In this document: one piece after another, positions 17,705 to 37,625 of the stretch | Layout of the letters: every line of letters begins with the position of its first letter | Position numbering within the stretch: the stretch's first letter is position 1 | DNA from: Ferriphaselus sp. R-1 | Lineage (GTDB): Bacteria > Pseudomonadota > Gammaproteobacteria > Burkholderiales > Gallionellaceae | Length of the DNA: 64,000 bases | Assembly: GCF_000746095.1 (NCBI RefSeq) | Contig: NZ_JQKP01000007.1 | Coordinates: 62,001 to 126,000 of the forward strand | Direction: 5' to 3' | The notes under the pieces: model-generated | The model's database searches: none | What the model was told of the DNA's origin: nothing | Seen by the model: the letters and a program-made list of their open reading frames with translations, nothing else | Program-made: the position numbers and the translations under genes

Positions 17705-18886
17705 CTAAGCAGCCTGCTTGGTACGCATCACCTCCCTGATGATCTCCGAGGCTGTGTTCGATGCCGCCTGCAAGGTCTTCGCTGACAAGTGCGAGTAACG
17801 TTGCGTTGTGACCGGACTGGCGTGACCCAACAGGTTCTGCACGGTGTACAAACTCTGCCCTGCGCTAACAAGCAGACTGGCGTACTGGTGGCGCAGATCA
17901 TGGAGCCTAAGCTGAGGCAGCCCAGCCTTCCCCCGGAGTCGGTGCCATACGCGGGTTATGGTGGTGTAGGCCAACCCGGTTTGAGCGTTCACGAACACAT
18001 CCTCGAACCTACCTTCCGTTCCGACATGATCCAAGATTTCTAGTGCGGTGTCGTTTAGCGGGATGGTTTTGACCTTCTTGGACTTGCTCGTGCTGGCCGG
18101 AATTCGCCATAACCTATTCTGCCGGTCGATATGCTCCCACTTTGCAGAGAGAGCTTCGTTCAGGCGGGCACCGGTCGAGAGCAGGAACAGTGCGATATTA
18201 CACACGGGGCGATTCTCATCGGTGTGCAGCACGGTCAGCAGCTTCTGCAGTTCACTGTCGTTCAGCAGATGATCGACCTTGTTGTCCGGGTTAGCTAACT
18301 GAATACGGGCAACTGGATTACTGCCCTCGAACATCCCCCAATCGTGAGCAAGATTAAACATCCTTTTGAGCAGCTTCAGATGGTGATCTGCAGAGGCCGG
18401 GGCCAACCCTTCCGCCAGCAACGCAGTGTGGAATGACTGCACCTGATGCCGGGTGATTTGATTCAGACGCATCTTGCCGAACTTGCCCTGGATGCGGATG
18501 CGATATAGCTGCTCGTCCCGCGTGAAGGATCGCTTTCTTGGCTTGGCATAGGCGAGGTAGTGCTGCCACAGCTCGTCTAGGGTAATCACAGCCTTCTTGG
18601 CTTCAGCCTCAGCACGTGGATCGGAGCCGAGTTGAATCTCAGCCTTCAATGCACGGGCCTTCTTCCGGGCCTCGGCAAGCGATACCACATCACCGCGACC
18701 TATCTTGGCGTACTTGGTCTTGCCATCCTCCTTTCCTTTGTAACGAAGTTGGTACGTACTGCCGCCATTTCTCCTGACCTCAAGGACTAGTCCAGGCAGA
18801 TCACGGTCGCAGTACTCGATGCGAAGCTTCCCGTCTGGACACTGCAGGCTGGGGATGAGTTGTTGCGTGAGTTGTACGATTGGCAT
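17705..18886 (-). CDS. int: Tyrosine recombinase/integrase of element A
   Basis: A 393-residue integrase with an N-terminal DUF4102-like arm-binding domain (DLPGLVLEVRRNGGSTYQLR), a SAM-like core-binding domain (about 100-200) and a C-terminal catalytic domain. The catalytic set is complete: Arg in STGARLNEAL, Lys in TSKSKKVKTIPL, HDLRH, LLGHASPVTTQRYSHL with the final His and nucleophilic Tyr. It would recombine the tRNA-Phe sites at 15.8 and 32.6 kb. It lies 1.8 kb inside the left end, with the nucleotidase gene between it and the attachment site. Confidence 0.95.
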   Translation of the reverse strand: MPIVQLTQQLIPSLQCPDGKLRIEYCDRDLPGLVLEVRRNGGSTYQLRYKGKEDGKTKYAKIGRGDVVSLAEARKKARALKAEIQLGSDPRAEAEAKKAVITLDELWQHYLAYAKPRKRSFTRDEQLYRIRIQGKFGKMRLNQITRHQVQSFHTALLAEGLAPASADHHLKLLKRMFNLAHDWGMFEGSNPVARIQLANPDNKVDHLLNDSELQKLLTVLHTDENRPVCNIALFLLSTGARLNEALSAKWEHIDRQNRLWRIPASTSKSKKVKTIPLNDTALEILDHVGTEGRFEDVFVNAQTGLAYTTITRVWHRLRGKAGLPQLRLHDLRHQYASLLVSAGQSLYTVQNLLGHASPVTTQRYSHLSAKTLQAASNTASEIIREVMRTKQAA

Positions 18887-18959
18887 ATTAAATCTCCATA
18901 TTGAGTGAATAGGTGGCCGCGCCCCTCCCCTCGAAGGGAGGGGTTAGCGAGATACATAG

Positions 18960-20204
18960 TCAGAAATCGGCCTCGGTCCTACCTGGGGGCAGTCCATTCA
19001 CCCAAGTCCGCTGGAACGGGGTTAAACCATCGTCAGGCGCTTCTTCGTCATATGTTGCCGAGGTGTCCGGAATTTCCTCTGGTGTTTTCGGTGAAGTTAG
19101 GTAGCGGTCGAAAGCATCTTCGAACTGGGTAAGCTCAAAGCCCTTGGGCGTGCTATACGGGCCTTGCCGGACGGTTTTTGACTTGATGCCGTACGGTGAA
19201 AGAAGCTTCGCAAGCTGGCGTGGGGTGATCGGCTTGCCGTAGTTGTACGTCGCCCAGGGCCGCTCATCATCCTCGATCAACCCCCCGATCATCTCGGCAG
19301 TGGTGATGCGACCGACACGCTTCCCCTGAAACACATCCCGGATGTCGCCGAGCAACTCGTTTCCGAAGCTGGTCGACGGCTCATTCAGATTGGACAGAGC
19401 AAGCGCAGCAGCTGTGGCTCGTTCAAGCCACCCATGACCAGCCAGCTCAGCAATGGCAAGCAAAGGCTCCCAGTTGTCCTGATCACGATCGCCAAGCGCA
19501 TCAGGGACGGGTGGACGAGCAGTGCGGATGGCATCACAAAAATCAACTGCAAAGCGCGCAAGTTTTGATGCAATGTGCCCAAACAATCCAGCATCGGCGT
19601 GTCGAAGTCGCTCCACCCTTTCTTCGAGCGTTTTACGGCGCAAGTTGATTTGGATTCCCCGACTCATCGTCGCTGAGGGAAGGTGCCGTTCAAGGCCAAT
19701 TCCGGCAATGGCCTTAGCTCCCCAGACCGAGAATCGCATGGGCTCGTGGTTTTCACCAACGATGCGAAGTACATAAGCAGCCGAGCGAGAGTGCCCGGCG
19801 TTGATCAGACCAGTCAGCTCATTTTTTTCACGGAAGAACGTGTCGGCTTCGTCGATGAGCAGCGTTGGCGAATATTTCTCAATCACCCGAAACAGGCCCG
19901 CTAGGGTGATGTTCGACACCGAAAGCTGACGAGCTGACATACGTCCGACCAGTTCTAGAAGTTGCGATTTCCCGCATGACTTCTCGGGCGCATTGATCAG
20001 CAGAAGTGCGGCAATCTGGACAGAATCGATGCCCCAAGTAAGGGCAATCCACAGACTGACCGCATCGGCCTGATGAGGGGTAAGCACGATGTAGCGCCGA
20101 ATCAGCTTGGAGACTTCATCCAGCAGCTCGGCAAGGTTGATTGGATCTGGAAACGGTGAAACTGGTGGGAACAGTTCGCCACCACTGCTAGCTTTAATTG
20201 CCAT
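18960..20204 (-). CDS. DUF3631 domain protein (helicase/primase-associated ATPase)
   Basis: A 414-residue protein with a P-loop ATPase core. A Walker A-like NAPEKSCGKSQLLELVGRM and Walker B TLLIDEADTF are followed by a sensor-like region and the DUF3631 C-terminal domain (GNELLGDIRDVFQ, then RQLAKLLSPYGIKSKTVR). DUF3631 proteins are common in integrative elements and phage-derived islands, often with primase functions, and may support replication of the excised element. ATG 20204 follows AAGGAAA. It precedes the integrase gene by 73 bp on the same strand. Confidence 0.85.
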   Translation of the reverse strand: MAIKASSGGELFPPVSPFPDPINLAELLDEVSKLIRRYIVLTPHQADAVSLWIALTWGIDSVQIAALLLINAPEKSCGKSQLLELVGRMSARQLSVSNITLAGLFRVIEKYSPTLLIDEADTFFREKNELTGLINAGHSRSAAYVLRIVGENHEPMRFSVWGAKAIAGIGLERHLPSATMSRGIQINLRRKTLEERVERLRHADAGLFGHIASKLARFAVDFCDAIRTARPPVPDALGDRDQDNWEPLLAIAELAGHGWLERATAAALALSNLNEPSTSFGNELLGDIRDVFQGKRVGRITTAEMIGGLIEDDERPWATYNYGKPITPRQLAKLLSPYGIKSKTVRQGPYSTPKGFELTQFEDAFDRYLTSPKTPEEIPDTSATYDEEAPDDGLTPFQRTWVNGLPPGRTEADF

Positions 20205-25396: not shown

Positions 25397-26308
25397 ATGA
25401 GCTCAGGCACACACGACACACTGGTGTATCGACTTTCAATGATGCTAGTGAAGCTTAATCAAGGGGAGAAGCTTGACCTGCACGATTTGGCTGATGAGTT
25501 TGGCGTGAATGTCCGTACGGTTCAGCGCGACATAAATGAACGCTTTGCGTATCTGCCCATTCAACGATCAGGTACCAAATATCATCTTGACCCGGCATAT
25601 CTTGGGAAACTCACGACGCGGGATATAGAGCGTTTTGCAGGTTTGGCCGGTGTTCGGGGGCTATTCCCCTCGCTGTCTGACGAGTTCATGCGCGACATTT
25701 TTGATGCCCGCATTCAATCTGCCTTATTGGTAAAGGGACACAGCTACGAGAGTCTGGCAGGCAAGGAACAACTATTCCGCGAGCTGGAACAAGCCATCAT
25801 CGCACGCCGCCACATTGCGTTTGACTACAGCAAGGCAGATGGCATCAAGAGATACCAAGCCATCGCGCCGTTCAAACTAATGAACCACAAGGGCATCTGG
25901 TATTTGGCCGCACGCGATGGAGACAAGCTCAAAACCTACTCCTTCGCAAAGATTGCCGCGCTGCGGTTGACTGACACTCATTTCGAGCCAGCCCCTTCCA
26001 TAGACCAGCGACTTGCCGAAGAAGATGGCATCTGGATGGGCGAAGAAAAGAAAGAGATCGTGCTGAAGATCTCCCGCGAAGTGGCGAGCTACTTCAAACG
26101 CCGCAAGCTGATCGCCAACCAGGTCATCGAAAAAGAATTGGAAGATGGTGGATTGATCCTCTCCGCCAAAGTTGGGCATGTAAATCAGGTGTTGCCGATT
26201 GTCAGGTACTGGATACCCAACATACGCATCATCAGCCCAGAGGGATTGCAGGAAGAGTTAGAGCGTGAGTTAAAAGCGTACGTTGAGCGAGTCGGCAGTT
26301 TGGTCTAA
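25397..26308 (+). CDS. WYL domain-containing transcriptional regulator
   Basis: A 303-residue regulator. It has an N-terminal winged HTH (LDLHDLADEFGVNVRTVQRD), a linker, a WYL ligand-sensing domain (AIAPFKLMNHKGIWYLAARD) and a C-terminal WCX dimerisation part (VASYFKRRKLIANQVI...). WYL proteins commonly control phage defence and DNA-damage loci by sensing nucleic acid or nucleotide ligands. It is the first gene after a promoter region holding two repeated elements and is followed 16 bases later by the Sel1 gene. This makes it the likely switch of the cargo block. Confidence 0.9.
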   Translation: MSSGTHDTLVYRLSMMLVKLNQGEKLDLHDLADEFGVNVRTVQRDINERFAYLPIQRSGTKYHLDPAYLGKLTTRDIERFAGLAGVRGLFPSLSDEFMRDIFDARIQSALLVKGHSYESLAGKEQLFRELEQAIIARRHIAFDYSKADGIKRYQAIAPFKLMNHKGIWYLAARDGDKLKTYSFAKIAALRLTDTHFEPAPSIDQRLAEEDGIWMGEEKKEIVLKISREVASYFKRRKLIANQVIEKELEDGGLILSAKVGHVNQVLPIVRYWIPNIRIISPEGLQEELERELKAYVERVGSLV

Positions 26309-26324
26309 ATCAAGGGAGAGAAAA

Positions 26325-27383
26325 ATGGCAATGATTAAGTGTGACGAGTGCGGCAAGGATATTTCTGACAAGGCAGCGGCATGCGTTGGATGTGGAGCTC
26401 CTATAACCAAGCAAATTTCTGAATTCGAGATGCTCCAGAAAGCAGCAGAGCAAGGGGATGTGGAGGCTCAATGTACGATTGGCACCCGATATGAAACGGG
26501 CGATGGTGTTGCGGTTGATTATGACAAGGCAATATTCTGGTACCAGTTAGCTGCCGAGAATGGGCACGAAGAATCTCAATACAAACTAGGACTGATGTGC
26601 CAGAAAGGTCAGGTCATTATTGACGGCAAGCGTGTTGGAGATATCTCAGGCGATGGAGTAGTGGATTACGAGGATTTCAAGCTTGCAGTTACCAAGCCAA
26701 AAGTGCTTCCTGCTGCAGGAAAAAATGAGCCAAGCGTAGGTCATACTGAAGTTGACAGGCTAACCAGCCTCACTCAGGAGGCTCAGCCAGTAAAGATGAC
26801 TGAAAGCCAAATCAAAAGGGAGAAATTTAAAGCAGCATTAGAAAGCACTATAGACGCAAAATTTGCGAATATCATGAGCAGTAAGTCTGGTGATGACAAA
26901 TTCTTAACCTATTTTGATGCACAAATCCTTACCACTTCCGTACGAAATATATTCAAGAATCTACTGCAAATCGTCCCGGCTCAAATCGAGGCTGCGCTTC
27001 AGTTGAGTGAAATGGTTGTTGCCCCCACAAAACTGGAAAAGATAACGCATCTTAAGGCCGCGATTGGCATTGGAGGTGCTGTGACGGGGATTGGTTTGGT
27101 TCTGACTGGTGTGGGTGCCGCACTTGGTTGGGGCGCAAGTGCTGTAACAGCATTTACGACATTCTTTACGGGAGCTCACCTTTTGGGCCCTTTGGCTTGG
27201 GCAGCAAGTGGTGTAACTTTGGCCGGATTTGCCGCTTATTTTGCGACAACAAGTGACAAATACAAGGATTCCGAGAAGTTTATCAAAGTCCTAAAGAGCT
27301 CCACCTCAAAGGGTGTTGACGCGATATGGGATGAATATCAAGTAGAGCTATCAAAGATCGTTACTTCGGATGTTCAAGGTTAA
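26325..27383 (+). CDS. Zinc-ribbon, Sel1-repeat, EF-hand-like membrane protein
   Basis: A 352-residue modular protein. Residues 1-30 form a zinc ribbon (CDECG...CVGCG). Two Sel1-like repeats follow (GDVEAQCTIGTRYETGDGVA, then AENGHEESQYKLGLMCQKG). Next is a dockerin/EF-hand-like calcium loop, DISGDGVVDYED. After a soluble segment come two Gly/Ala-rich hydrophobic stretches (IGIGGAVTGIGLVLTGVGAA and GPLAWAASGVTLAGFAAYFA), suggesting membrane insertion near the C-terminus. ATG 26325 has GGGAG upstream. I know no protein with this exact order. It probably forms a unit with the next gene. Confidence 0.75.
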   Translation: MAMIKCDECGKDISDKAAACVGCGAPITKQISEFEMLQKAAEQGDVEAQCTIGTRYETGDGVAVDYDKAIFWYQLAAENGHEESQYKLGLMCQKGQVIIDGKRVGDISGDGVVDYEDFKLAVTKPKVLPAAGKNEPSVGHTEVDRLTSLTQEAQPVKMTESQIKREKFKAALESTIDAKFANIMSSKSGDDKFLTYFDAQILTTSVRNIFKNLLQIVPAQIEAALQLSEMVVAPTKLEKITHLKAAIGIGGAVTGIGLVLTGVGAALGWGASAVTAFTTFFTGAHLLGPLAWAASGVTLAGFAAYFATTSDKYKDSEKFIKVLKSSTSKGVDAIWDEYQVELSKIVTSDVQG

Positions 27384-27392
27384 CAGGCCTCG

Positions 27393-28571
27393 ATGGACAA
27401 CTCACAATCAACCCTAATTGCAGGGTCGGCAGTCATAGCGCCAAGTCAAGCTGCTTATGTAAAACTACCCTCTGATGTAGTTTTGAAATGGGTTGATAAA
27501 AAGCTACCAATCATCAGCGAGTGTGCCGACGCTGATTTTGTCAAAGGTGGTGGCCATCGCTGGAAAGGGGGGCATGATTTGTTAGTAGATGTCCCTCGAA
27601 CCTTCATGGAGCATGGACCGAGCAGAGCTATTCATCATGCCGCACACATAGTGCTAACTGATCTTCCAACTAAAGCCGGCATTCCAATCCCCGGACTGGG
27701 CGGCTCGGGCACTTTGGGCCAATGGCTAGTGGATGCAGGAATCCCCAAAGGCTATTTGAGTATTCATTGGGCGGATGGAGCATTTGGTGTGCTTGCTATC
27801 GCAGAAGGCTCCACCGATCTCCTTCAAGCGATAAATGGAACACTAACGATGAGTAGTGAAACATTTTTCGATACTTTTGTTGAAGGCGGCGTGGAAATTG
27901 CGCTTGCGTTTGCAGCAGAAAATGCTTGGAAACTGGGTGCTTTTAATCCAGCCATCGCAACTATAGGAGGTGCTGAGAATATTATCGCAGGCGTTATATC
28001 AACCTATCAAACCGTATCAATCTATGTTGATCCACTCGCGTTTCTCGGTAGTGCGGGGACTTCTGCTTTACTCGGGTTTGGCCTTGCATATGGAGTTGCC
28101 GGTGAAACTCTAGGCGAATCATCAATCAACGCAATTCGCGGAGGCGCAATCGGGGGACTATTCTCATTGTCGGTGGCATTCGGCTATGGGGCGCTGGCGG
28201 GACTGGTTGCCTATAAGCTAGGAGAACAACTTGCCAAAGTTCACGATGGGCAACTGAGCGCGACACTACAAATTAACGAGGCAGCTTATCAAATGCTGCT
28301 GGGTGAGCTGTGTAAAGGGAATGTACATCTCAAGGACTTTTTAGATCGTGCCGAGTTCAACATTGTATTGACCGATCAAGCTACCACGCTAGCCGCACAA
28401 CACTTGGATATTAGTGGGGAAGTTCGGCGGCTATCGGAGGATAATTTGCAACTCGATACTCATTCTGCCGTGCTTTCAGATAATCCCCCCCAACTGAAAT
28501 CGAACGTCCGAACTTTACCTGAGGACAACCCGATACTGACGGAGTGGTATCGGACCGTTTTTTCCAAATAG
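27393..28571 (+). CDS. Glycine-rich membrane protein of unknown function
   Basis: A 392-residue protein. A soluble N-terminal part (PSDVVLKWVDKKLPIISECA, HRWKGGHDLLVDVP) is followed by a middle with several Gly/Ala-rich hydrophobic segments (FLGSAGTSALLGFGLAYGVA, GAIGGLFSLSVAFGYGALAG). The C-terminal part is soluble and leucine-rich. Histidines cluster in MEHGPSRAIHHAAHIVL. The layout recalls pore-forming or effector-type membrane proteins, but I do not recognise a family. It starts 9 bases after the Sel1 gene, so the two are surely co-transcribed. Confidence 0.65.
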   Translation: MDNSQSTLIAGSAVIAPSQAAYVKLPSDVVLKWVDKKLPIISECADADFVKGGGHRWKGGHDLLVDVPRTFMEHGPSRAIHHAAHIVLTDLPTKAGIPIPGLGGSGTLGQWLVDAGIPKGYLSIHWADGAFGVLAIAEGSTDLLQAINGTLTMSSETFFDTFVEGGVEIALAFAAENAWKLGAFNPAIATIGGAENIIAGVISTYQTVSIYVDPLAFLGSAGTSALLGFGLAYGVAGETLGESSINAIRGGAIGGLFSLSVAFGYGALAGLVAYKLGEQLAKVHDGQLSATLQINEAAYQMLLGELCKGNVHLKDFLDRAEFNIVLTDQATTLAAQHLDISGEVRRLSEDNLQLDTHSAVLSDNPPQLKSNVRTLPEDNPILTEWYRTVFSK

Positions 28572-28659: not shown

Positions 28660-28723
28660 GCCCAACCTTTTTATGATGCCCTCACTTGGTCATTTCGATC
28701 AAGCCACTAAGGAGGGAATGAAA

Positions 28724-28933
28724 ATGGTCTGGATTGTCGGCTTGCTCATGGCATTCGTGTTTATCAAACTCGGGATGCTCATCATCATGGTGAAATTGCT
28801 GGCGGTTGCGCTGCAATTGGCCTTATTGGCTCTTGCTGTTCTGGGCATCATCTATGTTTGGCGCAAGGTGTTCGCGGCCAAGCCTAATCAGCAGGTGGTT
28901 TGGCTTTCCAAACAAATCAACAAAGGGGAATGA
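28724..28933 (+). CDS. Small membrane protein of the cargo block
   Basis: A 69-residue protein with two hydrophobic helices (MVWIVGLLMAFVFIKLGMLI and LLAVALQLALLALAVLGIIY) and a short basic tail (RKVFAAKPNQQVVWLSKQ). AAGGAGG lies eight bases before ATG 28724; ATG 28718 is in frame but too close to it. The following gene begins at or just after its stop. Function unknown. Confidence 0.65.
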   Translation: MVWIVGLLMAFVFIKLGMLIIMVKLLAVALQLALLALAVLGIIYVWRKVFAAKPNQQVVWLSKQINKGE

Positions 28934-28935
28934 TC

Positions 28936-29355
28936 ATGTCATGGCTCATGTGGCTGTTCGCTGCCCTTGTTATTTTGGGGATGATTGGAAGCAGTGCCGA
29001 AAAGAAGAAAAAACTGGAGGCCGAGCAAGAAGTACAGCGGCGGCGTAAAGAGGCCGAAGATTACATCTTGAATAGCGGAGACTCCGAAGCCATCAAAACC
29101 CTGATGCTGGCTCGGGCCAATCCTGCGAACTACAGTCAGGTTATGGCGGGCGGAATAAACCGTGGAAACGACACACTTAAGACTGCGCTTGGGGTAATGG
29201 CTGGCGTTGCAGCGGGAAATCTGGTTGCAAATGCGATTACCGCATCTTCCATTTCGAGCGCTTTGGATGATATGCAGTCTGAGCTGAATACGGCCGACCA
29301 TCCATCTTCAGGTGACTCACCCTGGGGTGGTGACGACACTTCAATCGACATCTAA
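28936..29355 (+). CDS. Membrane-anchored protein with charged helix
   Basis: A 139-residue protein. It has an N-terminal anchor (SWLMWLFAALVILGMIGSS), a highly charged helix (KKKKLEAEQEVQRRRKEAED), a central hydrophobic glycine-containing part (ALGVMAGVAAGNLVANAITA) and an acidic tail. ATG 28936 has GGGG at eight bases; ATG 28930 overlaps the preceding stop and is possible. I do not recognise a family. Part of the second run of cargo genes. Confidence 0.65.
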   Translation: MSWLMWLFAALVILGMIGSSAEKKKKLEAEQEVQRRRKEAEDYILNSGDSEAIKTLMLARANPANYSQVMAGGINRGNDTLKTALGVMAGVAAGNLVANAITASSISSALDDMQSELNTADHPSSGDSPWGGDDTSIDI

Positions 29356-29364
29356 GGACAAACG

Positions 29365-29688
29365 ATGAACATTTCATTCTGTAGCCATGTTGTTAAAGCA
29401 CTCGCCACATCTCTACTGCTGGGTGCCGCGCTATCGCCTTCTGTGTTTGCGGGCGATAACATGCCGCTCAAAGAAGGAACTGAGATCATCCCCATCAGGC
29501 CAGATGGCCAACGTGATTGGAGTGCAAACCGCTACAGAGTCGAAAGTGGACAAGCTGTGCCTATACGCCCCGACGGTCAACGAGACTGGAGCGCCAACAC
29601 CTATCGCTCAGAGGGCGGGAAGATTGTGCCAGTGAGACCGGATGGGCGCAGGGATTGGTCTGTGCCTGCCAACAAAATTGTAAATTAA
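29365..29688 (+). CDS. Secreted RPDGQRDWSA-repeat protein 1
   Basis: A 107-residue protein with a signal peptide (ALATSLLLGAALSPSVFA). The mature part consists almost wholly of three 23-residue repeats, each containing the motif R-P-D-G-Q/R-R-D-W-S: PIRPDGQRDWSANRYRV, PIRPDGQRDWSANTYRS and PVRPDGRRDWSVPANKI. The strict motif with variable spacers suggests short beta-strand units binding a ligand or surface. I know no described function. Ten bases separate it from a paralogous gene. Confidence 0.75.
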   Translation: MNISFCSHVVKALATSLLLGAALSPSVFAGDNMPLKEGTEIIPIRPDGQRDWSANRYRVESGQAVPIRPDGQRDWSANTYRSEGGKIVPVRPDGRRDWSVPANKIVN

Positions 29689-29698
29689 GCAGAACATC

Positions 29699-30004
29699 AT
29701 GAAGACTATTTTCGGATTTATTACACTGCTGTTTTTCAATAACTCTTTTGCTGAATACGCCTTCCCCTGTGTAGAGGATGGAGGCACTCTAGTGCAAATG
29801 AGAGCTGATGGACAACGTGACTGGTCAGCAAACGTGCTTGTCAGGAATGGTGACAAGATCATTCAATACAGACCCGATGGACAAAGAGATTGGTCAGCAC
29901 CTGTCTACAAGATCGAAGGTGGGATTAAGGTATATGTCTATCGTCCTGATGGGCAACGTGACTGGTCAGCTCCTGTATATGTCCTAGAATGTGCGACAGA
30001 ATAA
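29699..30004 (+). CDS. Secreted RPDGQRDWSA-repeat protein 2
   Basis: A 101-residue paralogue of the preceding protein: signal peptide (TIFGFITLLFFNNSFA), then three repeats QMRADGQRDWSANVLVR, QYRPDGQRDWSAPVYKI and VYRPDGQRDWSAPVYVL. A cysteine before the first repeat (FPCVED) and one after the last (LECATE) could close the repeat domain by a disulfide, which protein 1 lacks. Codon use differs between repeats and between the genes, so the duplication is old while the motif is preserved, indicating selection. Function unknown. Confidence 0.75.
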   Translation: MKTIFGFITLLFFNNSFAEYAFPCVEDGGTLVQMRADGQRDWSANVLVRNGDKIIQYRPDGQRDWSAPVYKIEGGIKVYVYRPDGQRDWSAPVYVLECATE

Positions 30005-30007
30005 AAG

Positions 30008-30559
30008 ATGGAATTGGCGATTTCCTATAGTCGGGCCGCTATAATTTCAGGCGAAGTCGGAATAGCGAAAGTTATAAACAAGTCAATTCAGTTTTCTTGC
30101 ATTTCGTTGCTGTTAGTATTAGGCGCTTGTGGTGATCAGCAAAAGATTGAAACGCACGTTCCATCTAACAGTGAAATTATCAGTCTCATTGATAAGTCGG
30201 ATCCTTTGCCCATCGAATTTGAGTTTGTTTCAGATGTGTTCTTGCTGGGAAGTGATTACACTGACCTCCAGCGGTCGAATCTGGAGAAAGGGATTATTGG
30301 AAAACTTGTTCAGTGGGAGTTGCCCATATACGAAATCTCACCGCAGGAAGACGGGACTTACCTAATCATCACTCAGCCTAACTTTAATGGCAAAAGTCAT
30401 TTAACGGCCACAGTGAGTACTCTCGCAAAGAGTGACAAAGATCGGGATTACCTAACTACACTGAAGACTAACGATTTGATCTCATTCAAGGGGGTGGTCA
30501 CCTCGATCAATTTTCGGATGGCTATCAGTGTCGCCCCCGCAGTTTTAGTAAACATATAA
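30008..30559 (+). CDS. Putative lipoprotein of the cargo block
   Basis: A protein of up to 183 residues with a lipoprotein signal (SIQFSCISLLLVLGACGDQQ, lipobox LGAC) after a long N-terminal stretch. ATG 30008 has a poor ribosome site, so a non-ATG start nearer the signal peptide is possible. The mature part has no motif I recognise. It lies between the repeat-protein genes and the large coiled-coil protein gene in the same direction. Confidence 0.6.
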   Translation: MELAISYSRAAIISGEVGIAKVINKSIQFSCISLLLVLGACGDQQKIETHVPSNSEIISLIDKSDPLPIEFEFVSDVFLLGSDYTDLQRSNLEKGIIGKLVQWELPIYEISPQEDGTYLIITQPNFNGKSHLTATVSTLAKSDKDRDYLTTLKTNDLISFKGVVTSINFRMAISVAPAVLVNI

Positions 30560-30581
30560 CTCACCAGAAAATAAGGAAAGT

Positions 30582-32249
30582 ATGCGAAATCCCTTTATTG
30601 GATTGGCTCAATGGGTGGTGCGCCACATCGTTTCATTTTTCATCATCGTAATAATCCTAGTCGTTGGTGCAGTTGTCCAAAGCAAATATCGCTCACTGGA
30701 AATCACTAAAACTGAAATTACGGAGCTAAAGAGTGGAGAGTTAAATCTCCAGTCATCAATTGAAAAATTGCAATCTGAGACTGGTGGTCGAGTTGCTAAA
30801 CTTAAAGCTGAAACGAAAGATAAGGTTGAAGAGCGAATTCGTGCGATTGACAGTGAGCTCAAAACAATCAATTGCAGCTCTATAGGTATTACCCCTGCCT
30901 TTTTGATCAACAAAGCAGAATGCAAGGCAAAAGAACAATTTCTGGGTAAAGAGAAAGAAGCGTTGCAAACTTTGCAGCAAAGACTGACAACAAGTGCCAG
31001 TTTACCTAAATTGATAAATGAGCAGAAAATTGCTTATCAAGCTCATCTTGATAATAGGAAAAGGTACGACGAAATGGTTGCGAACCATACTGAACACTTA
31101 GGCGACTATTTTAGAACTGAAGTTATTGGCTATAAGGGGCTGAATAGTAAAGATAAAGAGCTAATTGACGACTATAACAAAAAGACAGAAGCACGAAATG
31201 CTGCGGAAGCTAAGCTGAATTTATTAAATAAGAAGTTAGAAAGCTCCTTAAAGAGCCTTAGTCAATTTACCGGAACTGCACTCAAGGATTTGAATGCTGA
31301 AATCAAAGAAAAGGAGAAAAGTGTTCGTGAGAATCTGGTAGGGAGAATGCTTAACTTAGCGGGAGAAAAAATTCCTGCTGCCATTATGATTTTAGTTGGC
31401 ATTATTTTTTCGCCGCTGATTATCAAGGCATTGTTCTATTTTGTTATAGCGCCTTTCGCCGCACGCCGACCACCGGTATGTATTCTTCCTGATACGAATG
31501 GGTTAATGACAGGCGTGGGCGGCATTTCAGCAAAATCCCACGAAACTCAGAAAGTCTCATCGGTTTCCATCCCGATTACGTTGCGTGCATCTCAAGAGCT
31601 TTTGATTCACCCTGAATATCTGCAAAGTATCCCCACCAATGGAAAGATTCGCACGAAATGGCTGCTGGACTGGGCATATCCCTTGACCAGCATGGCGGCA
31701 GGGATGGTTGCATTAACGCAAATTTCAGGAGTTGATGGAGAAACCGTAGTTATCTCATCAACGAATGATCCGCTGAGTGAGGTTGGTTGGGTAGAGATAC
31801 CCGAAGGGTCATCAGTTGTGTTGCAGCCTCATTGCCTAATAGGCCTTTCTTATCAGAAGGGCGCGTCTCCAAAAATTACTAAGCACTGGCAACTAGGTAG
31901 CTTACATGCATGGCTAACGCTGCAACTCAGGTATTTGGTGTTTCATGGGCCAGTCAATATCGCACTTAAAGGATGCCGAGGGATTCGAATTGAATCCGCA
32001 GATAGTGGGCGGGCAATCAATCAGGCAGCCACAATGGGATTTAGTGCCAACATCAAATACTCTACATACAGATGCGAAACTTTCGCCTCATACTTACTGG
32101 GCGAGAAAGAGTTGTTTAATGACAGCTTCTCGGGGACCAGTGGTTACTACATCTATGAGGAAATGCCGCACTTTGGAAAGAGGGGCGGGGTAACTGGTCG
32201 TGGGCTTGAGGGAATCACGGACTCAGTACTGAAGGTATTTGGTGTTTAG
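30582..32249 (+). CDS. Large membrane/coiled-coil protein with AIM24-like C-terminal domain
   Basis: A 555-residue protein. It has an N-terminal membrane helix (IVSFFIIVIILVVGAVVQ), a long coiled coil (about 45-260, for example KTEITELKSGELNLQSSIEK) and a second membrane helix (AAIMILVGIIFSPLIIKALF). A beta-rich domain follows (about 300-555: SVSIPITLRASQELLIHPEY, EGSSVVLQPHCLIGLSY, LRYLVFHGPVNIALKG). It has the feel of AIM24/TerD-neighbourhood proteins, but this is a weak inference. Two-helix topology places the coiled coil in the periplasm and the C-terminal domain in the cytoplasm. Last gene of the rightward cargo block. Confidence 0.65.
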   Translation: MRNPFIGLAQWVVRHIVSFFIIVIILVVGAVVQSKYRSLEITKTEITELKSGELNLQSSIEKLQSETGGRVAKLKAETKDKVEERIRAIDSELKTINCSSIGITPAFLINKAECKAKEQFLGKEKEALQTLQQRLTTSASLPKLINEQKIAYQAHLDNRKRYDEMVANHTEHLGDYFRTEVIGYKGLNSKDKELIDDYNKKTEARNAAEAKLNLLNKKLESSLKSLSQFTGTALKDLNAEIKEKEKSVRENLVGRMLNLAGEKIPAAIMILVGIIFSPLIIKALFYFVIAPFAARRPPVCILPDTNGLMTGVGGISAKSHETQKVSSVSIPITLRASQELLIHPEYLQSIPTNGKIRTKWLLDWAYPLTSMAAGMVALTQISGVDGETVVISSTNDPLSEVGWVEIPEGSSVVLQPHCLIGLSYQKGASPKITKHWQLGSLHAWLTLQLRYLVFHGPVNIALKGCRGIRIESADSGRAINQAATMGFSANIKYSTYRCETFASYLLGEKELFNDSFSGTSGYYIYEEMPHFGKRGGVTGRGLEGITDSVLKVFGV

Positions 32250-32844: not shown

Positions 32845-33555
32845 ATGACATCAGAGAGCAGCCCCGCTATGGTATTTAACGTCTATTGTGACGAGAGTCG
32901 CCATACGTCCGATCCATCGGATCGTTTTGCAGTTATTGGTGCTATCTGCTGCCCGCGAGAGAAAAAGCATGAACTGGTTCGTGCTATCCACGAATTGAAG
33001 GCAAGGTATCGAGCGCAAGGCGAAATAGGATGGAGTCGGGTTTCGCCCAATAAGCTTGATTTCTATCTGGCGATCCAGAAACTCTTTCTGGAAGCTCCTG
33101 AGTTGTCTTTTCGATGTATTTTGGTTGATCGCACAACGTTGGATCACGAAAAATTCAGCAATGGCGATGCCGAGTTGGGTTTTTACAAGTTGTACTATCA
33201 GTTATTAGTGCATTGGTTGGAGCCTGGCGAGACATACTTTCTTTATCTTGATTGGCAACGTAATAGCGATAAAGGACGTTTTGCAACATTGCGAGAAGTC
33301 TTGGCCAGGAAATTGCGCGGGCGTGCCCGTATTGAGTGCCTAGAGCCAGTTGAGTCGCACACGCAACCGTTAGGACAGTTGGCGGATTTGCTTATCGGTG
33401 CAGTTGGTTACCAATGGAATGATCGGAATGCTAGCAAAGCAAAGCTAGTATTTTGTGAACAGCTTGCGCAAGGTTTGGGACAGCAAAGCTTAAAGTTTTA
33501 CACTGGCCCGGCCGAGCCAAAATTCAATATCTTCAAGTGGGTTGGGGCTAAGTGA
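32845..33555 (+). CDS. DUF3800 domain-containing protein
   Basis: A 236-residue protein of the DUF3800 family, which has an RNase H-like fold. The first acidic motif is VYCDESRH; YFLYLDWQRN in the middle and QPLGQLADLLIGAVGYQWND at the C-terminus carry the other conserved acidic residues. Such proteins are frequent in mobile elements and defence loci and are thought to be nucleases. No clear ribosome site is seen; ATG 32869 is an alternative start. Its stop overlaps the next start by one base, so the two genes form a coupled pair. Confidence 0.85.
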   Translation: MTSESSPAMVFNVYCDESRHTSDPSDRFAVIGAICCPREKKHELVRAIHELKARYRAQGEIGWSRVSPNKLDFYLAIQKLFLEAPELSFRCILVDRTTLDHEKFSNGDAELGFYKLYYQLLVHWLEPGETYFLYLDWQRNSDKGRFATLREVLARKLRGRARIECLEPVESHTQPLGQLADLLIGAVGYQWNDRNASKAKLVFCEQLAQGLGQQSLKFYTGPAEPKFNIFKWVGAK

Positions 33556-34064
33556 TGCCAAGGGAATCGTTGTGGCCCTTTCTTACTTTTGATGGCTTGT
33601 CTGACTCCGATTTGATCAATGCGTACCGGAAAGTTTATTTAGAAACTTATGTGCAAGCCCCTGATGGCCAGCGTGTGATGCTACACGATTGGACTGGCGC
33701 GCACGTAAATTTCCCTCCGTGGCAATTTGATCACGCTTTTTCCAAGACTAGTCAATATCGCGAAGGGCTGGATCACGATACCTTCTCATTGGAGCGTGCC
33801 AAGCGCATGCTTTGGATACGAGAAGTAATTCAAGCCACAAATGGAACTGTATTTCGGTATGTCGGGACTCGCCAATCTGGTCGTGGGCGACAGGTTAAGC
33901 GTCGGTCGTTCCTAGTTCATGAGGAAAACTACCTTGTTGTGCTCAACGATCCAGATGCTGAAGGTAAGCCCTTTCAATTTATTACCGCATATCCGGTGTA
34001 TGACTTGGATTACTTGAAGAGGATCAGGCGGGAAAATACGCTTTTGGAAGAACGAAGGGCGTAA
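33555..34064 (+). CDS. Candidate barnase/EndoU/ColicinE5-like (PBECR-type) nuclease
   Basis: A 169-residue protein whose pattern resembles the phage-encoded PBECR nucleases of the barnase-EndoU-colicin E5 group. Visible are PWQFDHAFSKTSQ, SLERAKRMLWIREVIQA, a basic strand GRGRQVKRRSFLVHEENYLV and the ending FQFITAYPVYDLDYLKRI, which matches the C-terminal strand of that fold. The likely catalytic His lies in FDHAF. If correct it is an RNase toxin or effector. The assignment is from remembered pattern, not a search. ATG 33555 overlaps the DUF3800 stop. Confidence 0.6.
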   Translation: MPRESLWPFLTFDGLSDSDLINAYRKVYLETYVQAPDGQRVMLHDWTGAHVNFPPWQFDHAFSKTSQYREGLDHDTFSLERAKRMLWIREVIQATNGTVFRYVGTRQSGRGRQVKRRSFLVHEENYLVVLNDPDAEGKPFQFITAYPVYDLDYLKRIRRENTLLEERRA

Positions 34065-34195: not shown

Positions 34196-34801
34196 TCAGT
34201 TTTCGCCAAAAACCTTCAGTAACGCCATTTGCGCGGTTTTATAGACCCTTTCTGCGGAAGCGGTGTTTTCACGCGTGAAAGTGGTTTTTCCTTGGTCCTC
34301 ATGTAGCCACGCCTCTAATTTGGGGTCGATTTTTGGGGGATCGGTTTCGGGCACTTCCGGCTCTGGGGTGCATAGCCACCGGCCTAGCACGAGGTGTTCG
34401 CTGAGCAGACGTTCCATTACATGCTGCGGGGTGGCACCCAGGGCGGAGGCGATTTCTTCCAGGCGCAGGCGAGTGGCATCGGTCAACGTGACAGCGTTAC
34501 CACTGAGGGATTCGACGTGCTCGTAGTGGTCTGGATCGGCCAGGGTAAAGCCGAAGTGCGCCCATTCGTCGCCGACAAATTCGTACTCAGCACATAACTC
34601 CTCATCGTTCGGATCGAACGCGCCACCTTCCTCCGGGATAAATTTGGTGGTGACCATAAAATTGGTCAGCCTGTTCACGTCCGGTGACTCGCTGAAATCC
34701 TCCTGATAATAGACTGGCAATGTACTGACCACCTGGACGCGCACGCCGGGCACCAGGCCGCACTCGTACACCTTGCCGACTTGAGGGAGGATTGGTTTCA
34801 T
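34196..34801 (-). CDS. Hypothetical protein
   Basis: A 201-residue acidic protein with no recognised motif. It starts MKPILPQVGKVYECGLVPGV, has an acidic middle (FIPEEGGAFDPNDEELCAEY), a helix that looks like a DNA-binding or dimerising segment (DATRLRLEEIASALGATPQH) and a proline-rich linker. ATG 34801 follows GGAG; ATG 34804 is adjacent. Its start is divergent from and slightly overlaps the beginning of the gpA-like gene. It may regulate that gene, but this is inferred from position alone. Confidence 0.65.
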   Translation of the reverse strand: MKPILPQVGKVYECGLVPGVRVQVVSTLPVYYQEDFSESPDVNRLTNFMVTTKFIPEEGGAFDPNDEELCAEYEFVGDEWAHFGFTLADPDHYEHVESLSGNAVTLTDATRLRLEEIASALGATPQHVMERLLSEHLVLGRWLCTPEPEVPETDPPKIDPKLEAWLHEDQGKTTFTRENTASAERVYKTAQMALLKVFGEN

Positions 34802-36139
34802 CATGGCTCCAGATTGGAAGTAAGTGGTGCACAGCTTAAGCAACTGCGCAAACGGTTTCAGAAAATAGAGGCTGCTGCGATTAAAACCGGCTTCGTCCAT
34901 AAGCGTGCCGGTATGTACGCCTCAGATGAAACCGTAAAGCGCCGCCAACAACAGAAGCGCAAAAACGCGAAGCTGATGGAAAACCTCGAAGCCGTCCACG
35001 ACCTGACCGGCGAGGTCTGCACCCTTGCGGAGTTGGCCGCAACCAACACCAGCAATCCGGCCATTCGCCGCACTGAATTGATGACCCGCGTGCGCGGCCT
35101 AGAGGAATTTTCCGGGCAGCTTGGATTCGTTGGCTTGTTCCTCACTTTGACCACACCCAGCCGGATGCACGCCCGCCATTCCGGCGATGGTTCCGCCAAC
35201 CTGAAATACGATGACACCAGCCCGAATAAGGCGCACCGATACCTCTGCAAAAAGGTGTGGGCACCTGTCATGGCGAAGCTACAACGTGAAGGCGTGGATT
35301 ACTTCGGCATTCGCGTAGTCGAGCCACACCACGACGGCACACCGCACTGGCACATGCTGGTGTTCGTCAAGCCAGAACATCAAGACAACTTGACCGCCAT
35401 TCTCCGCGACTACACCCTGCGCGACAGCCCGGACGAACCCGGCGCCCAGGAACGCCGCCTTACCGTGAAGGCCATAGACCCGGCCAAGGGCAGCGCCACC
35501 GGCTACGTTGCCAAATACATCTCCAAGAACATCGACGGCCATGCCGTGGGCGATGACTACGAAGCCGACACCCCCACTGACAGCCGAGCAACGGCGGAGC
35601 GTGTCGAAGCCTGGGCAAGTCTCTGGAGAATCCGCCAGTTTCAATTCTTCGGCGCTCCACCCGTTACCCCCTACCGCGAGTTGCGCCGCCTTCAGGCCGT
35701 GCCGGAATCCTGGCAAAGCGTCCTGGGCGAAGCCTGGAAAGCCGCCGACGAGGGGGACTTCTGCGCATACACCCGCCTGCACCGCGCTGGCTTGATCCTC
35801 AAACCTCTCTGGGAAGAGCGAGAAAGCGCCACCTACTACGGCGAAGTAAACAAGCGCGTGCGCGGCGTGATTGTCAACGGCGAGGTTCGTATCACCACCC
35901 GCGAGGGTGAATGGATTGTGCGCGAGAAAGAAAGCGCACGGCAAGACCGTTTTTCCGCCCCTTGGACTCGTGTAAATAACTCTACGCACAAGGTTTCAAA
36001 GGGTCTGGAGTGTGAACAGGCACTAACTTCAAGCAGTGAAGGAAATGAAATCGGGGGAAATCGGGAAGGGAAAGAAGTCAAGCACCGTGAATCGCCAGAA
36101 TCCGGCGCTCGACCAGCCCAAAATTGGAGGCCGGAATGA
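34781..36139 (+). CDS. Replication endonuclease, phage P2 gpA-like (short form)
   Basis: gpA-type HUH endonucleases nick the origin to start rolling-circle replication. Conserved parts are the EELMTRV-type region, LTLTTPSRMHARHS, the metal-binding EPHHDGTPHWHMLVF, and the two-tyrosine motif GYVAKYISKNIDG with YVAKY spacing as in P2. The 452 residues begin in the middle of the usual protein (around the KRAGMYASDETVKRRQQQK segment); P2 gpA is much longer, so about 250 N-terminal residues are absent. The start is uncertain (TTG 34781 is the first possible). Confidence 0.85.
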   Translation: MREDWFHHGSRLEVSGAQLKQLRKRFQKIEAAAIKTGFVHKRAGMYASDETVKRRQQQKRKNAKLMENLEAVHDLTGEVCTLAELAATNTSNPAIRRTELMTRVRGLEEFSGQLGFVGLFLTLTTPSRMHARHSGDGSANLKYDDTSPNKAHRYLCKKVWAPVMAKLQREGVDYFGIRVVEPHHDGTPHWHMLVFVKPEHQDNLTAILRDYTLRDSPDEPGAQERRLTVKAIDPAKGSATGYVAKYISKNIDGHAVGDDYEADTPTDSRATAERVEAWASLWRIRQFQFFGAPPVTPYRELRRLQAVPESWQSVLGEAWKAADEGDFCAYTRLHRAGLILKPLWEERESATYYGEVNKRVRGVIVNGEVRITTREGEWIVREKESARQDRFSAPWTRVNNSTHKVSKGLECEQALTSSSEGNEIGGNREGKEVKHRESPESGARPAQNWRPE

Positions 36140-36261
36140 AGAATAGCACCACACACAAGACGCGCAAGAACAATCGTCCGAACCAACCCAGCCAGAAAAC
36201 GCAATGGGCTTACGCCTCAAAGCCAAACAGGCGGCACACCGGACAAAGCGCGGAATTGTGA
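36136..36261 (+). CDS. Small basic protein
   Basis: A 41-residue, strongly basic protein (MKNSTTHKTRKNNRPNQPSQ..., ending GQSAEL). Its ATG overlaps the gpA-like stop in an ATGA and a GGAGG site stands before it, so it is probably translated. No family recognised; basic size and place are compatible with a nucleic-acid-binding accessory protein. Confidence 0.5.
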   Translation: MKNSTTHKTRKNNRPNQPSQKTQWAYASKPNRRHTGQSAEL

Positions 36262-36269
36262 GGTAAGCG

Positions 36270-36488
36270 ATGAAATTCCTATCCCAAGCAGAGCTTGCCG
36301 AATTGACTGAGCGCAAGACCAAGGCCAGGCAAATCGCTTGGCTCAAATTGAACGGGTACAAGTTCGCCATCGGCGCGAATGGAAGTCCAAAAGTGTTGCT
36401 GGAGCACGCCCAAGCAAAGCTGGGCGGATTCAACCAGGCCATTCCAAAAATGTCCGCCAACATTGAGCCAAACTGGTCGGCAGTTTAA
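36270..36488 (+). CDS. DUF4224 domain-containing protein
   Basis: A 72-residue protein matching DUF4224: FLSQAELAELTERKTKARQI, then AWLKLNGYKFAIGANGSPKV. Members sit directly in front of tyrosine integrases in phage-derived elements, where an excisionase- or regulator-like role has been suggested. GAGG lies before the ATG. The integrase gene follows 10 bases later. Confidence 0.8.
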   Translation: MKFLSQAELAELTERKTKARQIAWLKLNGYKFAIGANGSPKVLLEHAQAKLGGFNQAIPKMSANIEPNWSAV

Positions 36489-36498
36489 GAGAGTCATC

Positions 36499-37509
36499 AT
36501 GGGAAGAAAAAGAACAACAAACCACAATCTCCCGCCACGGATGCACCTCAAGGGGAAGATGTATTACCACGTCTCCACCGACAGCCCGCGCAAGTGGACA
36601 AAGCTGGCAGACGATCTAGGCTTAGCCAAACGGCTGTGGGCTGAAATCGAAAGCGAGCAGCCCGATCCGAATGACTGCACGTTTTCCGGGATCGTAGCCC
36701 GTTACAAAAAACAGGTGTTACCCAGCAAGGCACCACGCACCCAGCTCGACAATGAAAAGGAGCTGGAAAGGCTAGTGGCCGTGTTTGGCGGCATGCCTAT
36801 CGAGACCATCAAGCCCCACCATATCAAGCGCTATCTGGAAGAGCGCGGAAAGACCGCTAAAGTACGAGCGAACCGGGAGCGCGCTCTTTTCAGCCATGTA
36901 TTCAACTTCGCCAGGGAGTGCGGCTATACCGATGCCACCAATCCGTGCATGGGCGTAAAGGGACACAGGGAAGCCGGGCGGGATCGTTACATCGAGGATG
37001 CCGAATTCCTTGCCGTATGGAATAAAGCAGATGCCGCCGTACAGGATGCGATGGACTTGGCACACCTGACCGGCCAGCGCCCCGCCGACTTGCTCAAGAT
37101 GAATCGAAGCGACATCCGCGAAGGGACACTGTGCCTAGCACAGAACAAAACAGGAAAGAAGCTGCGCATCGAAGTGGAAGGAGAGTTGCTAGCACTGCTG
37201 GAGCGCATACAGAGCCGCGAAGGTTACGGCCTCGCCGTAGATGCTTTGCTGCAAGATGGGAACGGCCAGCGCCTATCCTACGGCGCTTTGCGCTCTCGCT
37301 TCGACAAGGCCAGGATAGCGGCGAAAGTCAGCTTCCAGTTTCGGGACATCCGCGCCAAAACAGCGACAGATACCGAAGACCTAGCACACGCCCAACGGCT
37401 GTTAGGGCATCGCAATCGAGCCATGACTGAGCACTACACTCGGAACCGGAAAGGGGATAAAGTGCGCCCACTGGCCGGAAGAATTGTAGAAACGGAAAAA
37501 GAGTTGTAG
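36499..37509 (+). CDS. int: Tyrosine recombinase/integrase of element B
   Basis: A 336-residue phage-type integrase. It has an N-terminal domain with HLKGKMYYHVSTDSPRKWTK, a core-binding domain (about 60-150) and a catalytic domain. Catalytic residues are Arg in LTGQRPADLL, Lys in QNKTGKKLRI, Arg in FRDIRAKTATD (the first His of the HxxR box is replaced by Arg, as in other phage integrases), and LLGHRNRAMTEHYTR with His and Tyr. ATG 36499 is chosen over the longer frame from 36379, which overlaps DUF4224. The 3' end lies 40 bp from the tRNA attachment site. Confidence 0.93.
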   Translation: MGRKRTTNHNLPPRMHLKGKMYYHVSTDSPRKWTKLADDLGLAKRLWAEIESEQPDPNDCTFSGIVARYKKQVLPSKAPRTQLDNEKELERLVAVFGGMPIETIKPHHIKRYLEERGKTAKVRANRERALFSHVFNFARECGYTDATNPCMGVKGHREAGRDRYIEDAEFLAVWNKADAAVQDAMDLAHLTGQRPADLLKMNRSDIREGTLCLAQNKTGKKLRIEVEGELLALLERIQSREGYGLAVDALLQDGNGQRLSYGALRSRFDKARIAAKVSFQFRDIRAKTATDTEDLAHAQRLLGHRNRAMTEHYTRNRKGDKVRPLAGRIVETEKEL

Positions 37510-37517
37510 AAATGAAG

Positions 37518-37541
37518 AAGGCTTGCACTGACGCAAGCCTT
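37518..37541. terminator. Bidirectional hairpin between integrase B and tRNA-Phe
   Basis: AAGGCTTGC and GCAAGCCTT form a perfect 9-bp stem with a six-base loop. It lies eight bases after the integrase stop and eight bases beyond the tRNA-Phe attachment core. It can end both transcripts and gives the tRNA a substitute for the terminator displaced by integration. Confidence 0.75.
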
Positions 37542-37548
37542 TGTATTC

Positions 37549-37594
37549 TTGGTGGCTCGGGGCGGAATCGAACCACCGACACGCGGATTTTCAA
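37549..37594 (-). other. Attachment site copy 3 within intact tRNA-Phe
   Basis: The 46-bp core shared with the two displaced fragments. Here it continues into the intact 5' half of the tRNA, so this is the functional right end of element B. Confidence 0.9.
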
Positions 37595-37625
37595 TCCGCT
37601 GCTCTACCAACTGAGCTACCGAGCC
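37550..37625 (-). tRNA. tRNA-Phe (anticodon GAA), CCA encoded; island integration target
   Basis: The reverse strand folds as a 76-nt tRNA. The acceptor is GGCTCGG with CCGAGCC, then A73 and encoded CCA. The D arm contains GCTCAGTTGGTAGAGC, the anticodon stem-loop GCGGATTGAAAATCCGC with GAA, and the T loop GGTTCGATTCC. It is intact despite serving as the attachment site of the islands to its left. Confidence 0.96.

What the first reader, a model, noticed from the sequence alone, without database searches (positions are those of the whole stretch)
29365..30004. Paralogous secreted proteins made of RPDGQRDWSA repeats
Both proteins have a signal peptide and then three units with the nearly invariant R-P/A-D-G-Q/R-R-D-W-S motif at 23-24-residue spacing and little else. 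DNA sequences of the units have diverged while the motif is kept, pointing to selection for a specific contact. One copy has flanking cysteines, the other not. I know of no described family with this motif.
Basis: partly seen in the sequence, partly recalled or inferred. Interest (0 to 1): 0.7.

Follow-up and report, generated by a model that had tools for sequence, protein, structure and literature searches.

The report
Secreted three-unit beta-repeat protein pair
Two neighbouring genes make small secreted proteins, each built from three copies of a 23-residue unit; they belong to a rare, so far unnamed family in relatives of iron-oxidising bacteria and sit in a block of envelope-type genes behind a sensor-type regulator, but what they bind is unknown.

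Summary
ORFs 29365-29688 (RPT1) and 29699-30004 (RPT2) each carry a signal peptide and three R-P/A-D-G-x-R-D-W units 23-24 residues apart; motif codons changed while residues stayed. No Pfam, NCBIfam or PADLOC profile passes its cut-off. The coordinates cut the story short: the genes follow a WYL-domain regulator (25397-26308) on the same strand. Of 158 genomes of the bacterial family, 4 have intact RPT genes and 1 a remnant; in all 4 a WYL gene at least 82% identical lies 2.3-3.1 kb upstream. All five intact proteins have exactly three units. AlphaFold gives mature RPT2 a confident antiparallel meander (pLDDT 90, pTM 0.76); the nearest structures, all weak, include the single-layer sheet of OspA. 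Period and DG-x-[RK]-[DE]-W recall MORN-like repeats of a large viral contig, but no MORN profile matches. Best reading: an exported hairpin-repeat scaffold, held together by its conserved Arg, Trp and turn residues, working with envelope proteins of a WYL-headed accessory cassette. 'A specific contact' is only one of two readings of the conservation. Ligand, partner and phenotype are untested.

The parts
25397..26308 (+). WYL-domain transcriptional regulator (HTH + WYL + WCX) at the head of the block
   Evidence: PF13280 E 4.5e-10, PF25583 E 7e-12; copies 82-86% identical upstream of RPT in three other genomes
26283..27383 (+). zinc-ribbon + Sel1 protein with a Gly-rich hydrophobic C-terminal part; true start probably inside the listed ORF
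   Evidence: PF08238 E 9.7e-14; weak PADLOC LeoBC row E 4e-5
27393..28571 (+). 392-aa protein, Gly-rich and hydrophobic by eye, unknown
   Evidence: no Pfam, PADLOC or PHROGs row and one NCBIfam row far below its cut-off
28530..28553 (+). terminator-like hairpin at the end of the 392-aa gene
   Evidence: pattern scan; 11 sites found in the region against 7.8 expected by shuffling, so weak
28718..28933 (+). membrane protein of about 70 aa (start at 28718 or 28724), conserved neighbour of RPT
   Evidence: homologues in L010 and L035 beside RPT, and in G002 without RPT; start codons checked
28936..29355 (+). single-TM protein of about 139 aa (searched as 137 aa from 28942), conserved neighbour of RPT
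   Evidence: 64-88% identical in G414, STC_7 and G002; start codon checked
29365..29688 (+). RPT1: secreted protein of 107 aa, three 23-residue units, no Cys in the mature part, calculated pI 9.4
29365..29451 (+). RPT1 signal peptide (by eye, ends V-F-A)
   Evidence: sequence; helix 5-22 in the model
29699..30004 (+). RPT2: secreted protein of 101 aa, three units spaced 23 and 24, a Cys at each end of the array, calculated pI 4.8
   Evidence: model pLDDT 90.4, pTM 0.76
29699..29752 (+). RPT2 signal peptide (by eye, ends S-F-A)
   Evidence: sequence
30008..30559 (+). lipoprotein with an L-G-A-C lipobox (by eye); true start probably downstream of the listed one
   Evidence: homologue 40% identical downstream of RPT in L034
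30582..32249 (+). 555-aa protein with N-terminal hydrophobic stretch, of a wider family
   Evidence: 51% identical relative downstream of RPT in L035; relatives in 6 of 300 order genomes, own included

Best explanation
RPT1 and RPT2 are small exported (probably periplasmic) repeat proteins. Shown by sequence: exactly three 23/24-residue units each, signal-peptide-like N-termini, selection on the motif, and linkage to a WYL regulator and to membrane and lipoprotein genes. Supported by prediction: each unit adds two antiparallel strands, giving a meander whose R-P-D-G turn and Arg/Trp columns recur every second strand. Inferred: the conserved Arg, Trp, Asp and Gly mainly build this thin sheet, which has little room for a hydrophobic core, and its exposed faces and edges serve as a scaffold or adaptor for envelope proteins of the same cassette (the lipoprotein, the 555-aa protein). 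Inferred: the WYL protein switches the cassette under some envelope or mobile-element stress. I put about 0.9 on the secreted, WYL-linked repeat family, about 0.55 on an open or nearly open hairpin sheet, and about 0.35 on the scaffold role.
For: Linkage: intact RPT in 4 of 158 family genomes (G000 twice, G117, G414, G430), remnant in G459; WYL relatives at E<=1e-40 in 6 of 158, including all 4; order and strand; hypergeometric P 6e-7 if genomes were independent, which they are not. Exactly 3 units in 5 of 5 proteins. Mature RPT2 model pLDDT 90.4 with strands 28-32/35-39 and 51-55/59-63 and short bridges at 12-13, 16, 22, 45 and 69; best VIA row OspA, Z 4.1, 51 residues, rmsd 2.5. CPAP/Tcp10 chains, a single-sheet domain as I recall, are among the Foldseek rows, and Tcp10_C is a sub-threshold Pfam row for RPT2. 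Viral 23-residue DG-x-[RK]-[EA]-W repeats align in the same register (doubled profiles score 27.1, 0 of 200 column shuffles reach it, best 19.2), with the selection caveat given in the Against line. Listed ORFs from 28936 to 32249 are 3-22 bases apart.
Against: No structural row is strong: Z 4.1 is below the level the tool calls meaningful, none of 978 chains reached Z 5, and no Foldseek PDB row reached E 0.001. Other rows are propeller blades and barrels, so openness of the sheet is not shown. Only 3 of the 5 intact proteins went into the predictions. The RPT1 model is poorer (pLDDT 70.5). Coordinates could not be inspected. The viral repeats were found with RPT motif patterns, their units were cut out with a motif expression, and only 11 of 15 RPT units were long enough to be used, so the shuffle control overstates the kinship. 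No partner is shown: among the ORFs compared only the WYL gene is common to all 4 RPT blocks; the 70-aa, 139-aa, lipoprotein and 555-aa genes are each missing from at least one. The 70-aa and 139-aa genes occur in G002 with no RPT behind them.
Confidence: 0.4

Rival explanations
1. The Arg/Trp ladder is a binding surface: three equal sites bind a repetitive anionic or sugar ligand such as LPS, capsule or stalk polysaccharide.
For: Trp and the second Arg are the same in 15 of 15 units; spacing is regular; choline-binding and toxin-A-type hairpin repeats, which bind choline or sugars as I recall, are among the weak Foldseek rows.
Against: The same residues could be structural; calculated pI runs from 4.8 to 9.4 among the five members, so a common charged ligand is doubtful; no ligand-binding family matches by profile above cut-off.
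Confidence: 0.25
2. The three units close into a ring or six/seven-stranded barrel; the two RPT2 cysteines, both at the level of the E-G-G turn, lock the seam.
For: Exactly three units in 5 of 5 proteins, unlike open arrays that vary; in RPT2 the Cys sit at the two ends of the array at the turn position; a redesigned barrel, lipocalin-like proteins and LolB are among the VIA rows.
Against: Only RPT2 of the five has mature cysteines; the four highest VIA rows are open OspA sheets; Z values are all low.
Confidence: 0.25
3. Divergent MORN repeat protein: same lineage as the 23-residue MORN-like repeats of viruses and eukaryotes.
For: Period 23 and DG-x-[RK]-[DE]-W in shared register with the viral repeats.
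Against: No MORN or MORN_2 row for any of the 5 RPT proteins at E up to 10 (HMMER filters hide many weak matches); the GxG and YEGEW features described in PMC7725318 (passages) are absent; only a 12-column core aligns in single units; the viral set was picked by the RPT motif.
Confidence: 0.15
4. Non-functional cargo drifting in an accessory block.
For: Rare (4 of 158 genomes) and broken in G459.
Against: Synonymous change dominates at the Arg and Gly motif columns across 15 units; signal peptides, unit number and linkage are kept.
Confidence: 0.07

Closest known systems
MORN repeats (junctophilin/TbMORN1 type; PMC7725318, passages read)
   Same: 23-residue period, one beta-hairpin per unit, conserved Gly and Trp
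   Different: No GxG/YEGEW consensus, no Pfam MORN row, exported, always three units
23-residue HREDGPA...DGxKEW repeat proteins of a 402-kb IMG/VR contig (L011-L014)
   Same: Period 23, DG-x-[RK]-[EA]-W in the same register
   Different: Longer arrays, extra H-R-E-D-G-P signature, no signal peptide by eye, own N-terminal domain
OspA single-layer beta-sheet
   Same: Best VIA row of the RPT2 model, Z 4.1, 51 residues, rmsd 2.5
   Different: 8% sequence identity, no repeats of this motif, much larger protein
CPAP/Tcp10 G-box domain (Tcp10_C)
   Same: Single-sheet repeats with PDG-type turns (recalled); CPAP chains among Foldseek rows, Pfam row E 0.19 for RPT2
   Different: Far below the Pfam cut-off; eukaryotic centriole protein (recalled)
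PQQ-type beta-propeller blades and designed Cake proteins
   Same: Local N-P-D-G...W resemblance (phmmer E 2e-8 for RPT1 against Cake8, no single stretch significant); Cake4 tops Foldseek for RPT2 at E 0.02
   Different: Blades of about 40 residues; the profile of five RPT proteins lists no propeller at E<=10
WYL regulators of defence cassettes (BrxR family, PMC9122601, abstract read)
   Same: HTH + WYL regulator heading an accessory block
   Different: No known defence effector in this block by PADLOC apart from WYL rows and a weak LeoBC row

Membership tests
MORN repeat | 23-residue period | tested here: met
   Spacing 23 in 9 of 10 intervals and 24 in one, over five proteins
MORN repeat | match to Pfam MORN or MORN_2 profile | tested here: not met
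   No such row for 5 of 5 RPT proteins at E up to 10
MORN repeat | GxG and YEGEW consensus residues | tested here: not met
   Absent from the 15 units as aligned
MORN repeat | beta-hairpin plus connecting loop in each unit | tested here: inconclusive
   Model has two strands a unit; coordinates not seen
Tcp10/CPAP G-box | match to Tcp10_C above cut-off | tested here: not met
   RPT2 11.9 bits against cut-off 36
PQQ/Cake beta-propeller | blades of about 40 residues and family profile match | tested here: not met
   Unit is 23 residues; profile of five proteins lists no propeller among solved chains at E<=10
OspA-type single-layer sheet | sheet open to solvent on both faces | tested here: inconclusive
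   VIA Z 4.1, below the tool's meaningful range
WYL-domain regulator (25397-26308) | WYL and WCX domains with HTH | tested here: met
   PF13280 39.8 bits over cut-off 21.8, PF25583 46.0 over 23.9; HTH rows a little below their cut-offs
Known anti-phage system | effector gene matching PADLOC models in the block | tested here: not met
   Only WYL rows and a weak LeoBC row for 8 cassette proteins; library of 2023, the 70-aa protein not scanned

The most novel reading that the evidence does not exclude
RPT1 (calculated pI 9.4) and RPT2 (calculated pI 4.8, a Cys at each end of the array) add to each other edge to edge, with or without disulfides, and build a periplasmic single-layer beta-sheet fibre or ring whose production is switched by a WYL sensor: a two-part envelope scaffold with no known counterpart.
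Probability: 0.1. Interest if true: 0.7.

Novelty: new variant of a known kind. Interest (0 to 1): 0.38.

Why it matters
The family is a very short natural case of a repeat sheet that seems to rest on Arg/Trp columns rather than a core, small enough for full mutational study. It also marks a WYL-headed accessory block of envelope-type genes in the family of Gallionella that the defence library searched here does not name.

Tried and rejected
Weak database rows judged not to be members, each re-read: L005 and L041 are antisense frames of other genes (L005 with stops inside); L008 lies in another frame of a long ORF; L009 is an in-frame match of the signal-peptide region of a longer protein without the motif; L040 is an in-frame single match (GLKDWRAKSYLEVG) in a rhodanese-like protein; L020, L021 and L022 (G445, G408, G446; E about 0.01) are in-frame single matches (YTIWPDGQRD-YAP) in long proteins that I take from memory for CHASE-type sensors, no repeat; L003 and L004 (own genome) are chance-level. 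L051 is a phage protein with one RPDGQRDWS match. L006 is a phage protein with WSANRYRV-like text but no array.

Plasmid and phage tblastn gave no hit for RPT1 at E 0.01 and only rows of E 1 or worse for RPT2. The viral scan with the five-protein alignment confirmed none of 60 stretches. A designed-propeller match of RPT1 vanished with the family profile. Best sub-threshold Pfam rows are 11-17 residue stretches (PF23163 E 8e-4 for RPT1, PF22987 E 0.0014 for RPT2). Fold searches gave no PDB row at E 0.001; in the viral library one row reached E 9e-4 with the RPT1 model, an unnamed 103-residue phage protein whose sequence I could not fetch. NlpE, PliC and lipocalin-like rows had Z 2.1-2.6, tied with unrelated proteins.

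Neighbourhoods of 555-aa relatives L058-L061 show no RPT motif in ORFs of 70 codons or more; for the Croceicoccus plasmid (L062) and the Acinetobacter WYL plasmid (L064) I saw only the gene tables. The Diaphorobacter WYL block (L063) holds zinc-ribbon (by eye) and TM2 proteins but no RPT motif. Paper searches for Gallionella with WYL domain and for the motif string found nothing in the open library.

Idea of a recent duplication inside the window rejected: RPT1 scores 106 bits (54%) against the G430 protein and 75.5 bits (40%) against RPT2. RPT2 itself is about equally far from all others (69-76 bits), so its line of descent is open.

Full report
What was checked. Positions 29365-29688 and 29699-30004 hold two same-strand ORFs of 107 and 101 codons, ten bases apart. 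Each has a hydrophobic N-terminal stretch ending in a signal-peptidase-like site (V-F-A|G and S-F-A|E, judged by eye) and then three units with R-P/A-D-G-Q/R-R-D-W-S. The motifs are 23 and 23 residues apart in RPT1 and 23 and 24 in RPT2. In 20000 shuffles of each mature protein no shuffle had three R..G.R.W motifs. The finding is real and its coordinates are exact.

Selection. Taking the 15 units of five intact proteins, 105 unit pairs a column, the second Arg column shows 86 synonymous and 0 non-synonymous codon differences, the Gly column 81 and 0, the first Arg 78 and 14, and Trp is the same in all; column -5, just before the motif, shows 6 synonymous and 94 non-synonymous. Over the eight motif codons together there are 351 synonymous, 215 non-synonymous and 274 identical codon pairs. 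These are pair counts over related sequences, not independent events. They do not say whether the motif is kept for folding or for binding.

The family. No curated family passes its cut-off: Pfam for five of five proteins, NCBIfam for five of five, PADLOC for RPT1 and RPT2. PHROGs gave weak, unnamed rows for three of the four proteins scanned. A scan of 84,980 species genomes with RPT1 patterns confirmed 1 of 163 matching stretches, in the MAG Gallionella sp. STC_7 (L010). Profiles in 399 order genomes and of the unit in 398 phylum genomes gave no further member; the two extra order rows were an antisense frame and a rhodanese-like protein. Its closest named relative here is Gallionella STC_7; from memory of genome size I would guess Ferriphaselus, which I did not verify.

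Sub-groups. RPT1 is nearest to the G430 protein (54%, 106 bits); its other scores are 79 bits for STC_7 (52% over 65 residues), 75.5 for RPT2 (40%) and 69 for G414. The STC_7 and G414 proteins pair with each other (56%, 114 bits). RPT2 is about equally far from all four (69-76 bits). So RPT1 and RPT2 are not a fresh duplicate; more cannot be said. Units at the same place in different proteins are about as alike (50%) as units within one protein (51%).

Surroundings. Upstream on the same strand lies a WYL-domain regulator (25397-26308; PF13280 and PF25583). In 158 family genomes a relative at E<=1e-40 occurs in 6: the four genomes with intact RPT (the three others 82-86% identical to the window's), G459 (67-68%) and G473 (41%). 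In all four, RPT follows the WYL gene on the same strand at 2.3-3.1 kb. Treating genomes as independent, which overstates the case, P is 6e-7. Genes in between and behind vary: a 70-aa and a 139-aa membrane protein before RPT in the window, STC_7 and, with insertions, G414; a lipoprotein family behind RPT in the window and G430; the 555-aa protein behind RPT in the window and G414. The window thus combines gene sets seen apart elsewhere. G430 also carries a DUF697 protein, the RPT remnant of G459 lies near an EcsC-family protein, and the G459 WYL gene lies on another contig beside a dynamin-family GTPase and a YjcZ protein. That last pair corresponds by family to RdcA/RdcB of E. coli, which PMC6510439 describes as soluble (passages read). 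The membrane, lipoprotein and signal-peptide genes are why I place RPT in an envelope cassette; this is inference from company. WYL regulators often sit with defence systems (PMC9122601, abstract read), but PADLOC names no effector in this block beyond a weak LeoBC row.

Structure. RPT1 with three aligned proteins gave pLDDT 70.5, higher (block means 80-87) over residues 41-100. Mature RPT2 with the same three proteins gave pLDDT 90.4 and pTM 0.76, strands at 2-4, 28-32, 35-39, 51-55, 59-63 and 76-78, and short bridges at 12-13, 16, 22, 45 and 69. I read this as an antiparallel meander: strand, R-P-D-G-Q turn, R-D-W-S-A-x into the next strand, E-G-G turn, and so on. The coordinates could not be inspected. 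VIA-align found nothing above Z 4.1 in 978 chains; the top four rows are OspA sheet regions (best: 51 residues, rmsd 2.5), followed by hemopexin blades, swapped retinol-binding proteins, and designed propellers and barrels. Foldseek rows in the PDB have E of 0.02 or worse. So a thin hairpin sheet is likely; its openness is not settled. Exactly three units in five of five proteins, and RPT2's cysteines at both array ends at the turn level, would fit a closed ring as well.

Relation to known repeats. Proteins on a 402-kb viral contig (L011-L014, found with RPT motif patterns) consist of 23-residue units with D/N-G-x-K/R-E/A-W. Of 21 intervals between motif matches, 14 are 23 and the other 7 multiples of 23 (five ORFs examined). 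With 26 viral units and 11 of the 15 RPT units, doubled profiles align over 35 columns with score 27.1, against a best of 19.2 in 200 column shuffles; single units give 18.1 against 15.5. Because the viral set was picked and cut by this very motif, the shuffles overstate the kinship; common descent and common turn chemistry are both possible. MORN repeats also have 23 residues with one hairpin each (PMC7725318, passages read), but none of the five RPT proteins draws a MORN row, and the MORN consensus residues are absent. RPT may work like these thin hairpin repeats; it is not shown to be one of them.

How it may work. The simplest account is a small exported scaffold. Arg and Trp recur on every second strand and could stack, as in the Trp-Arg ladder of thrombospondin repeats (PMC6954052, passages read), giving stability to a sheet without a core. 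The faces and free edges would then bind envelope partners made by the same block. This step is inference. The main rival is that the ladder itself binds a repetitive ligand. The decisive tests are a structure and binding assays with Trp and Arg changes.

Limits. Rarity of the family (five intact proteins, three used in prediction) limits every inference about fold and function. No expression, export or binding data were at hand. The search for 555-aa relatives was in 300 order genomes and showed that protein also occurs away from RPT, in G117 on another contig than its RPT gene.

Noticed in passing
window 32845-34064: Two overlapping genes match the PADLOC candidate defence pair PDC-M04A/B (E 1e-71 and 5e-54; DUF3800 for the first), right after the RPT block.
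   Followed up: partly
window 34781-37625: Phage GPA-type replication gene, integrase and tRNA-Phe in a row: a small integrated element abutting the block.
   Followed up: partly
window 17705-20204: A second tyrosine recombinase and a DUF3631 protein on the other strand, with G+C down to 0.42-0.57 between 14 and 40 kb against about 0.6 outside: the region looks like adjoining islands.
   Followed up: partly
L011, L013 (402-kb IMG/VR contig): A run of neighbouring paralogous genes, many with a short N-terminal domain starting M-I-T-I and an array of 23-residue H-R-E-D-G-P-A repeats; best Pfam row is DUF6745.
   Followed up: partly
L049 4307-8595 (G459): A WYL regulator 67-68% identical to the window's sits beside a dynamin-family GTPase and a YjcZ protein, a link between this WYL group and an RdcA/RdcB-like pair.
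   Followed up: partly
L059 3574-7309 (G232): A relative of the 555-aa protein lies beside a protein that by eye resembles the DUF697 protein of G430, in another bacterial family of the order; a further 555-aa relative is on a Croceicoccus plasmid.
   Followed up: no
L020, L021, L022 (G445, G408, G446): A single YTIWPDGQRD-YAP stretch in long sensor-like proteins resembles the RPT motif; probably a chance or turn-level likeness.
   Followed up: partly
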